The notes under the pieces are model-generated. The model worked only from the letters and a program-made list of their open reading frames with translations, was not told the DNA's origin and did no database searches. A DNA stretch of 64,000 bases, taken from positions 1-64,000 of the forward strand of contig NZ_SIRT01000011.1 of the NCBI RefSeq assembly GCF_004310325.1, given 5' to 3'. Numbering within the stretch: position 1 is the stretch's first letter; each line of letters opens with the position of its first letter. Below, piece by piece: positions 58,149 to 58,397 of this stretch. This DNA is from Hyunsoonleella flava. GTDB taxonomy: Bacteria > Bacteroidota > Bacteroidia > Flavobacteriales > Flavobacteriaceae. A program made the position numbers and the translations under genes.

Positions 58149-58172
58149 TAATACGCTGATAACCTTGGTTTT

Positions 58173-58300
58173 ACTTGAAAAACAAGACTTTGGCAAGTGC
58201 GCCTGCGTTAGGGATTGCAGCGATAGCTTTTGGCGAGGCGCGCATCGAGCCAAAACTACCAGCGGAAAGCCCGACCCGACCCTAGGAGGGGAACGCCCAA
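58173..58300 (+). ncRNA. GC-rich structured RNA candidate, resembling the Flavo-1 motif
   Basis: The spacer between two subunit III genes contains a block much richer in G and C than its surroundings. It folds by eye: GCGTT (58205-58209) with AACGC (58292-58296) as closing stem; TTTTGGC (58228-58234) with GCCAAAA (58249-58255) inside; CCCT/AGGG near 58280-58290 as a small third hairpin; and ACTTG/CAAGT just upstream. Key single-strand pieces are TTAGGGATTG and GGAAAGCCCGACCC. I recall such sequences from many Flavobacteria intergenic regions and think they match Rfam's Flavo-1, whose function is unknown. The family call is from memory; the structure is seen directly. Strand is not certain. 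Confidence 0.6.
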
Positions 58301-58397
58301 ATTGAAATTAATGAGTTTTTAATTTTTAGAGAGTGATATTTCGTTAGATGAATAAAATGATTATTTTTGTGCAACTTTTAAATAATAACCATTATAT

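What the first reader, a model, noticed from the sequence alone, without database searches (positions are those of the whole stretch)
58149..58397. GC-rich folded element between two cytochrome oxidase subunit III genes, a Flavo-1-like RNA candidate
This spacer is much richer in G and C than anything around it and shows nested complementary arms: GCGTT/AACGC, TTTTGGC/GCCAAAA and CCCT/AGGG. It carries no reading frame and no T-run terminator. From memory, sequences with TTAGGGATTG and GGAAAGCCCGACCC recur in Flavobacteria spacers and resemble Rfam Flavo-1, whose function is unknown. Lying inside a respiratory operon, it could control the ratio of the two subunits III or be a processed small RNA or mobile repeat.
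Basis: partly seen in the sequence, partly recalled or inferred. Interest (0 to 1): 0.72.

Follow-up and report, generated by a model that had tools for sequence, protein, structure and literature searches.

The report
Modular Flavo-1-type repeat in cox operon
The GC-rich patch between two respiratory genes is one of roughly a hundred scattered copies of a folded, modular repeat related to the unexplained "Flavo-1 RNA" family, whose hairpin tips can differ between species at the same chromosomal place while its base stays put.

Summary
Window 58189-58301 contains the most GC-rich 100 nt of the window and holds a folded element. It aligns to the whole Rfam Flavo-1 model, but at 32 bits against a cut-off of 42, so it is a Flavo-1 relative, not a curated member. 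A model built here finds 132 matches in this genome and 13-138 in each of 11 congeners (E <= 0.01). Covariation supports a three-way junction: a closing stem, a long hairpin with an exchangeable tip, and a second short hairpin. The 215 of 247 copies that could be placed lie in all gene orientations. The coxIII site is filled in 8 of 12 genus genomes and empty in 4. At 10 of 32 orthologous sites, species carry different tip classes, in the clearest cases on an unchanged base. Eight contig ends show an IS110-type end fused at one point to eight Flavo-1 copies, so the repeat also serves as an insertion target. Best reading: a modular dispersed repeat, probably mobile, riding in the cox mRNA. I found no support for control of the CoxIII ratio. 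What moves the repeat is unknown.

The parts
58189..58301 (+). whole element as matched by model R1 (the only match in the window at E <= 1)
   Evidence: 106.2 bits, E 2.2e-22 for 64 kb; this copy is one of the 40 from which R1 was built
58196..58280 (+). sub-threshold Rfam Flavo-1 (RF01705) match, full model 1-76
   Evidence: 32 bits, curated cut-off 42, E 4.1e-5 in 351 bases; no family reached its cut-off in the window
58189..58204 (+). 5' leader, loosely conserved (TTDGCRRATANGCCC-like), missing in many copies
   Evidence: low information upstream of the closing stem in 42 copies; flanks listed (that listing was cut)
58205..58210 (+). closing stem P1, 5' strand GCGTTA
   Evidence: 5 of 6 pairs have copies changed on both sides in A3; the sixth pair (58210 with 58291, A-G) is not formed in this copy
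58291..58296 (+). closing stem P1, 3' strand GAACGC
   Evidence: 58292-58296 pair with 58205-58209
58211..58213 (+). P2 base GGG, 5' strand of the Flavo-1 hairpin
   Evidence: pairs with 58270-58272; copies with AGG/CCT, GCG/CGC and GTG/CAC exist
58220..58221 (+). inner P2 pairs GC, partner 58262-58263
   Evidence: GC/GC changes to GT/AC and AC/GT in other copies
58224..58258 (+). exchangeable tip, class T1: TAG-C-TTTTGGC, loop GAGGCGCGCATCGA, GCCAAAA-CTA
   Evidence: at this site sister species carry T3 or T4 tips
58270..58272 (+). P2 base CCC, 3' strand
58275..58290 (+). second hairpin P3 (CCC, loop, GGG), tip also variable between copies
   Evidence: 3 of 3 pairs have copies changed on both sides in A3; in-place differences listed
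58297..58301 (+). conserved 3' end CCAAA, followed by about 10 A/T-rich bases
58340..58397 (+). host sequence next to the second coxIII gene, similar in congeners with and without the element; holds TATTTTTG (58362-58369), resembling the recalled Bacteroidetes -7 box
   Evidence: spacers compared by eye; promoter reading recalled, not tested

Best explanation
The patch is one copy of a high-copy, modular, non-coding dispersed repeat of the Flavo-1 kind. Shown by comparison: a three-way-junction base held by covariation; variable tips on both hairpins; placement between genes in every gene orientation; presence or absence at the coxIII site among congeners. Inferred: it spread as a non-autonomous mobile element; it inserted in the coxIII spacer within this genus, between the first gene and the conserved upstream region of the second, and is read as a passive folded segment of the cox mRNA; and its tips are replaced in place by copying from other copies of the repeat (gene-conversion-like or template switching at the short conserved arms), while base and flanks stay. 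Any host effect is then generic (mRNA folding, end protection, processing) rather than control of CoxIII stoichiometry.
For: Copies: 132 matches in this genome, 13-138 in 11 congeners; at E <= 1e-4 in 12/12 genus genomes, 28/37 of other genera of the family, 6/31 genomes of the order outside it. Structure: 12 of 14 pairs with double changes, 194 such cells against at most 32 with slid partners, 95.9% of cells paired against at most 51.3% slid (102 matches, an alignment fitted to the model); 8 of 14 pairs and 30 cells against at most 9 slid on an alignment not fitted to it; RNAalifold finds the same junction by itself on 15 copies. Polarity: among 1393 pair cells, 27 G-T/T-G against 4 A-C/C-A, so the modelled strand is the one that folds. 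Placement: 215 of 247 copies classified, >E> 76, <E< 52, divergent 46, convergent 41; none of 247 inside an ATG-started ORF of 150 aa or more. Presence/absence: coxIII spacer filled in 8 of 12 genus genomes, empty in 4 and in 18 of 18 loci read from other genera. Tip exchange: 26 of 90 same-site pairs and 10 of 32 sites have different tip classes, all pairs being between different genomes; arms keep site-specific letters (identity 0.938 against 0.868 for random pairs matched for tip class, 0 of 1000; one pair per site 0.944 against 0.874, 19 of 2000). Cleanest pairs: L015/L309 (same adjacent flanks, base and second hairpin, tip T1 or T2) and L229/L293 (same rare base GCGTAA/TTACGC and second hairpin, tip T1 or T4).
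Against: No target-site duplication or exact empty site was seen, because the species compared are too diverged in spacers; mobility rests on copy number and presence/absence. G001, close by CoxIII identity (90%), is empty, so gain and loss are not ordered. There is a slight excess of sense over antisense tandem copies (76 to 52, p = 0.04, copies not independent). In one search, with other start codons allowed, one copy (L004) lay in a 172-aa ORF and six in ORFs of 74-90 aa. Compensated in-place changes (9 of 18 variable pair-sites among 256) could mean that resident copies are under selection, that is, have a function. Counting one pair per site, wholly identical arms were not clearly more frequent than at random (5 of 10; 102 of 2000 random draws as high), and the random pairs were not matched for lineage. 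No enzyme that moves the repeat was found.
Confidence: 0.74

Rival explanations
1. A cis-acting element of the cox operon that sets the ratio of the two subunits III by attenuation, processing or mRNA stability.
For: It sits sense-strand between the two genes and folds; 8 of 12 genus genomes keep an element there; an in-place compensated change in its closing stem (GCGTTA-type against GCATTA/TAATGC) within the cox set.
Against: The same repeat has over a hundred matches in the genome and the copies placed lie in all orientations; 4 congeners and 18 of 18 loci from other genera lack it here, one filled congener (L066) has a damaged closing stem, and its tip class differs between species at this site; no terminator.
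Confidence: 0.1
2. A family of trans-acting small RNA genes, as Rfam's type 'Gene; sRNA' implies.
For: Strand-specific pairing constraint (27 G-T to 4 A-C) and in-place compensated pairs fit a functional RNA; Weinberg 2010 marks Flavo-1 'y' as RNA and 'n' as cis-regulatory (PMC2864571, table row).
Against: Orientation nearly random, high and variable copy number. In F. psychrophilum, Flavo-1 hits lay indistinctly sense or antisense to transcribed regions and many lay outside them, though several coincided with 5' regions (PMC9723704, passage).
Confidence: 0.08
3. A REP/REPIN-type element moved by a RAYT (Y1_Tnp) transposase.
For: Dispersed GC-rich intergenic hairpins; one Y1_Tnp match in this genome and at least one in 10 of 12 genus genomes.
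Against: No Flavo-1 motif (up to 3 substitutions) within 1.5 kb of that gene; a different repeat (CTAGCGGTAGCGGGG) lies beside it. G003 has 106 R1 matches and no Y1_Tnp match, while G004 has 6 Y1_Tnp matches and 13 R1 matches.
Confidence: 0.05
4. Different tips at one site arise from repeated whole-element insertion or replacement at hot spots, not from exchange of tips on a fixed base.
For: Some same-site pairs also differ in base and second hairpin (for example L068/L069, L268/L372).
Against: L015/L309 and L229/L293 keep base variants and second hairpin, and L015/L309 also the immediate flanks, while the tip differs; arms of same-site pairs are on average more alike than matched random pairs.
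Confidence: 0.2

Closest known systems
Flavo-1 RNA (Rfam RF01705; Weinberg et al. 2010, PMC2864571, table row seen)
   Same: Full-length alignment to the model, same long hairpin with GATTG.AGCG and AGCGGAAAGC internal-loop strands, Bacteroidota; at three compared sites a species with a T2 tip passes the curated cut-off (L309 47.7, L334 55.3, L362 49.6 bits), and one T1 copy does too (L229, 45.7).
   Different: The window copy is below the cut-off (32 of 42 bits). It has an extra closing stem and a second hairpin, giving a three-way junction, and a T1 tip; the base is GGG/CCC where the model consensus has CC/GG (alignment).
BOX elements of Streptococcus pneumoniae (PMC3049150, passages seen)
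   Same: Modular, dispersed, largely intergenic, predicted to fold if transcribed, thought to be mobile.
   Different: BOX varies by the number of boxB modules; here one tip is replaced by another on a constant base. No sequence relation claimed or tested.
REP targets of IS110-family insertion sequences (PMC1525189, passages seen)
   Same: A dispersed hairpin repeat used as a specific insertion site by an IS110-family element.
   Different: The target here is the left arm of a Flavo-1-type element in Flavobacteriaceae.

Membership tests
Rfam Flavo-1 (RF01705) | score at or above the curated gathering score (42 bits) | tested here: not met
   32 bits for the window copy; 14 of the 38 matches at E <= 1 in this genome are above it
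Rfam Flavo-1 (RF01705) | full-length alignment with the model's helices | tested here: met
   model 1-76, E 4.1e-5 in 351 bases; six positions in the tip region are marked as not standard pairs
Rfam Flavo-1 (RF01705) | occurs in Bacteroidetes | tested here: met
   28 of 198 sampled genomes of the phylum match RF01705 at E <= 0.001, none of 14 control genomes; at E <= 1, 5 of 14 controls ring, none above the cut-off
REP / RAYT system | copies flank or depend on a Y1_Tnp (RAYT) gene | tested here: not met
MITE or other transposon-derived repeat | target-site duplication and exact empty sites | tested here: inconclusive
   empty coxIII spacers exist in 4 of 12 genus genomes, but flanks are too diverged for exact ends
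MITE or other transposon-derived repeat | terminal inverted repeats shared with a transposon | not tested
   ends TTTGG...CCAAA look weakly inverted in this copy; not compared with insertion sequences
cis-regulatory RNA of the cox operon | fixed position and orientation upstream of one gene family | tested here: not met
small RNA gene | discrete transcript | not testable with these tools
   no expression data

The most novel reading that the evidence does not exclude
Flavo-1-type elements are fixed chromosomal scaffolds with interchangeable RNA hairpin cassettes: an unknown activity acting on the folded strand (RNA- or single-strand-DNA-templated) replaces the tip of either hairpin at an occupied site from a small pool of tip classes, leaving base and flanks intact, so that each species carries about a hundred docking sites with reassorting tips.
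Probability: 0.2. Interest if true: 0.78.

Novelty: new variant of a known kind. Interest (0 to 1): 0.55.

Why it matters
A 2022 review counts Flavo-1 among the most abundant bacterial small RNA families and lists no function for it (PMC9029176, passages). The copies studied here behave as a modular dispersed repeat, which would explain the abundance and warns against annotating each copy as an sRNA gene. If tips are exchanged in place, that is an unusual form of repeat evolution that can be tested by comparing strains. The IS110 fusions suggest a natural target for bridge-RNA-type insertion in Flavobacteriaceae.

Tried and rejected
Rejected or weakened: RAYT as the mover. Ribosomal operon ends as the explanation of the eight identical contig ends: a Rfam scan (E <= 0.01) of five of the eight contig-end loci found Flavo-1 in two and nothing else, and the match in a relative leads into an IS110 gene. 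A phage source of the T1 tip: no hit in viral contigs, with one exact pattern only. Single-sequence folding as evidence: not significant. Looking for Flavo-1 halves beside more distant IS110 relatives (L375-L379, 37-52% identity): only weak fuzzy matches, none convincing. Folding of the IS end: two of three sequences give a stem with a large internal loop, but no fold is significantly better than shuffles (z 0.90, -0.11, -1.61), so the bridge-RNA reading rests on position and the match ATCCCTAAC, not on fold energy. The own genome's IS110 transposase was not found in the assembly (0 matches at 1e-60).

Limits of counts: alignment A1 holds 40 of the 46 copies found by pattern in 60 loci; six with longer inserts were left out, and at least seven other copies found by search but not by that pattern were never in it. 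A3 comes from 80 of 107 named loci and 10 of the 30 loci; the named loci were seeded with the T1 tip, so T1 is over-represented (141 of 247). Copy counts are capped at 150 scored candidates a genome, at 47 with stricter filters, at 22. Detection demanded at least 4 of 5 closing-stem pairs (3 of 5 for the IS-fused copies), which favours compensated over broken pairs in P1 and dropped the damaged cox copy L066 before the counts. The same-site rule admits about 1% of random pairs. One pair (P2.u2) was mis-registered for T3 tips and was dropped. Gene orientation uses a crude ORF caller, not annotation. The outputs were cut, so I read those lists in part. One search was a script error.

Full report
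What is there. The spacer 58149-58397 separates two genes with COX3 domains, between a UbiA-family gene upstream and a COX4_pro gene downstream. Its 3' end is host sequence: a stretch like GATTATTTTTGTGCAACTTTTAAATAA.AACCATTATAT recurs, with small changes, in congeners that have the element and in congeners that lack it (read by eye; in L063 and L075 more sequence follows it). The remarkable part is 58189-58301, 60% GC in a window of 36% GC; it contains the most GC-rich 100 nt of the window. No Rfam family reaches its cut-off in the window. A sensitive scan of 351 bases gives Flavo-1 at 58196-58280, 32 bits, E 4.1e-5; the next family has E 4.5.

Copies. BLAST of the element against the own genome gives 50 places at E <= 1, some of them parts of one copy. 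RF01705 gives 38 matches at E <= 1, 14 above the cut-off; at that E-value 5 of 14 control genomes ring too, none above the cut-off. Reading the copies shows one architecture: a loose 5' leader; GCGTTAGGGATTG; a variable tip; CGGAAAGCCC; GACCC, a variable loop, GGG; TAACGCCCAAA. Four tip classes recur: T1, TAGCTTTTGGC-GAGGCGNGCATCGA-GCCAAAACTA (the window copy); T2, ATCCTTTT...AAAAGATAT (the Rfam-like form); T3, TTGTTGAAGCTCC...GGAGCGACT and variants; T4, AAAGCCCACAGC...GCGAGGACTTG. A covariance model of 40 copies (R1) finds 132 matches in the own genome and 13-138 in 11 congeners at E <= 0.01, and a single match in the window. In 80 relatives at E <= 1e-4 it matches 12 of 12 genus genomes, 28 of 37 of other genera in the family and 6 of 31 of the order outside it. 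RF01705 itself matches 28 of 198 sampled genomes of the phylum. The exact T1 pattern has at least 107 matching stretches in the genome collection, where the scan stopped at its limit; the genera named in the titles (Algibacter, Tamlana, Hyunsoonleella, Jejuia, Wocania, Mariniflexile, Gaetbulibacter, Flaviramulus, Mesoflavibacter) are, as recalled, Flavobacteriaceae, and one MAG is labelled only Bacteroidia. There was none in viral contigs.

Structure. On the 40 own-genome copies, 8 of 14 pairs show changes on both sides that keep the pair (30 cells; 0 of 500 shuffles; at most 9 cells when partners are slid). On 102 matches mostly from named genomes, 12 of 14 pairs do (194 cells, 0 of 500 shuffles, at most 32 slid; the number of pairs alone was reached by 5 of 500 shuffles); that alignment was fitted to the model, so it leans towards it. 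RNAalifold on 15 copies with the T1 kind of tip (one of them truncated), aligned without structure, returns the same three-way junction. Non-Watson-Crick cells include 27 G-T/T-G against 4 A-C/C-A, and 53 others. G-T is the mismatch tolerated on the folded strand, so one polarity is constrained: RNA most simply, single-stranded DNA possibly. The cells are not independent.

Position and orientation. In the own genome 53 copies give >E> 16, <E< 12, divergent 10, convergent 9, and six with one neighbour only; seven of the 53 overlap a predicted ORF (six of 74-90 aa, one, L004, of 172 aa). Of 247 copies from 37 genomes, 215 could be classified: 76, 52, 46, 41; with ATG starts only, none of the 247 lies inside an ORF of 150 aa or more. 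The sense/antisense excess is small (p = 0.04) and the copies are not independent. A regulator of one gene family should not look like this.

The coxIII site. The first CoxIII gene was found in 52 of 60 relatives; the thirty best loci were read. Eight of the 12 genus genomes have an element in this spacer, on the same strand and at about the same place; four (G001, G004, G006, G011) and all 18 loci from other genera have none. The tips are T1 in the own genome, L062, L065 and L066, a T1 stem with a different loop in L063, T4 in L068 and T3 in L069 and L070; the last two carry a closing stem changed on both sides (GCATTA/TAATGC). In L066 the closing stem is damaged (GCGTTA against TAATCC), and in L065 one P2 pair is broken.

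Tip exchange. Among 247 parsed copies, 146 pairs match over both 700-nt flanks; 90 of these also match in the adjacent 40 + 40 nt above the 99th percentile of random pairs. All 146 pairs are between different genomes. The 90 form 32 sites; 10 sites hold more than one tip class, and 26 of the 90 pairs differ in class, one more involving an unclassed tip. The base at such sites keeps site-specific letters more than random pairs matched for tip class do (mean identity 0.938 against 0.868, 0 of 1000; one pair per site 0.944 against 0.874, 19 of 2000), and the second hairpin is identical in 3 of 10 sites against 2% expected (5 of 2000); wholly identical bases, 5 of 10, were reached by 102 of 2000 random draws. 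In L015 against L309 the adjacent flanks, base and second hairpin agree and the tip is T1 or T2. In L229 against L293 the rare base GCGTAA/TTACGC and the second hairpin agree and the tip is T1 or T4. The second hairpin also differs in place (L007/L279; L008/L144/L147/L155). Of 256 pair-sites in the base, 238 do not vary, 9 vary with compensation, 5 are broken and 4 wobble; detection favoured paired P1 stems. At three of the compared sites a species with a T2 tip passes the Flavo-1 cut-off while another species' copy is below it: L309 47.7 against L015 34.4, L334 55.3 against L005 36.4, L362 49.6 against L293 33.5 bits; the T1 copy L229, at the same site as L362, also passes with 45.7.

Insertion target. 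Eight contigs of the own genome begin or end with the same sequence, ending GTATTTGCTAATCTAAAG and directly followed by GTTAGGGAT and the rest of a Flavo-1 copy; the eight copies differ in sequence, fall in all four tip classes, and have different DNA beyond. The shared sequence is 93% identical to two ends in G002, of which I read one, again fused to a Flavo-1 copy (L108), and 85% identical over 103 nt to the non-coding end of a complete element in G001 whose gene has both IS110-family domains, PF01548 and PF02371. In G001 that element sits in another transposase-like gene (my reading), not in Flavo-1. In the orientation of the transposase the own genome's non-coding end holds ATCCCTAAC, the same nine bases as the Flavo-1 side of the junction; the G002 and G001 ends have ATCCCTAGC there, one base off. 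IS110-family elements choose targets with a bridge RNA (PMC11208160, listing and start of abstract only; that it comes from the non-coding end is recalled), so I read these nine bases as a candidate target guide; this is inference. IS110 elements that target REP repeats are known (PMC1525189, passages).

Comparison with what is known. The text library holds three papers with the word Flavo-1: the original table, a transcriptome study that saw several hits in 5' transcribed regions but no real clue to function because hits fell sense, antisense and outside transcribed regions, and a review that lists it as an abundant sRNA family without function. I saw passages only. None of these passages describes tip classes, in-place exchange or IS110 targeting, and one further search showed no such title; whether these are in print elsewhere (most subscription journals and preprints are not held) I cannot say. 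The window copy fails the Flavo-1 cut-off, so it is filed as a Flavo-1 relative with an extended base, not as a member. In how it behaves it resembles BOX elements and REPs.

Verdict. What is worth following is the modular exchange and the IS110 targeting, not the cox context.

Noticed in passing
L092-L099 (contig ends of the own genome), L108, L109:1500-2760: An IS110-family element end fused at one identical point to eight different Flavo-1 copies; its non-coding end holds a nine-base match to the target.
   Followed up: partly
L091:1237-1794 and following 700 bases: The only Y1_Tnp (RAYT-like) match of the genome, beside a different hairpin repeat with CTAGCGGTAGCGGGG.
   Followed up: partly
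L015:980-1139, L309:200-363, L218:1695-1870: Below-cut-off matches to Y RNA-like YrlA (up to 43.9 of 69 bits), near an array of tRNA genes in L015 and L218; possibly a Bacteroidota Y RNA.
   Followed up: no
G250 contigs C3, C16, C28 (L391-L393): Near-identical canonical Flavo-1 copies close to three contig starts, suggesting another long repeat beside Flavo-1.
   Followed up: partly
L002:1450-1592, L158, L195, L208: Copies without the 5' leader can start at or within a few bases of the T run of what looks like an intrinsic terminator.
   Followed up: no
window 58362-58369: TATTTTTG upstream of the second coxIII gene, kept in congeners with and without the element: possible Bacteroidetes-type promoter (motif recalled).
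   Followed up: no
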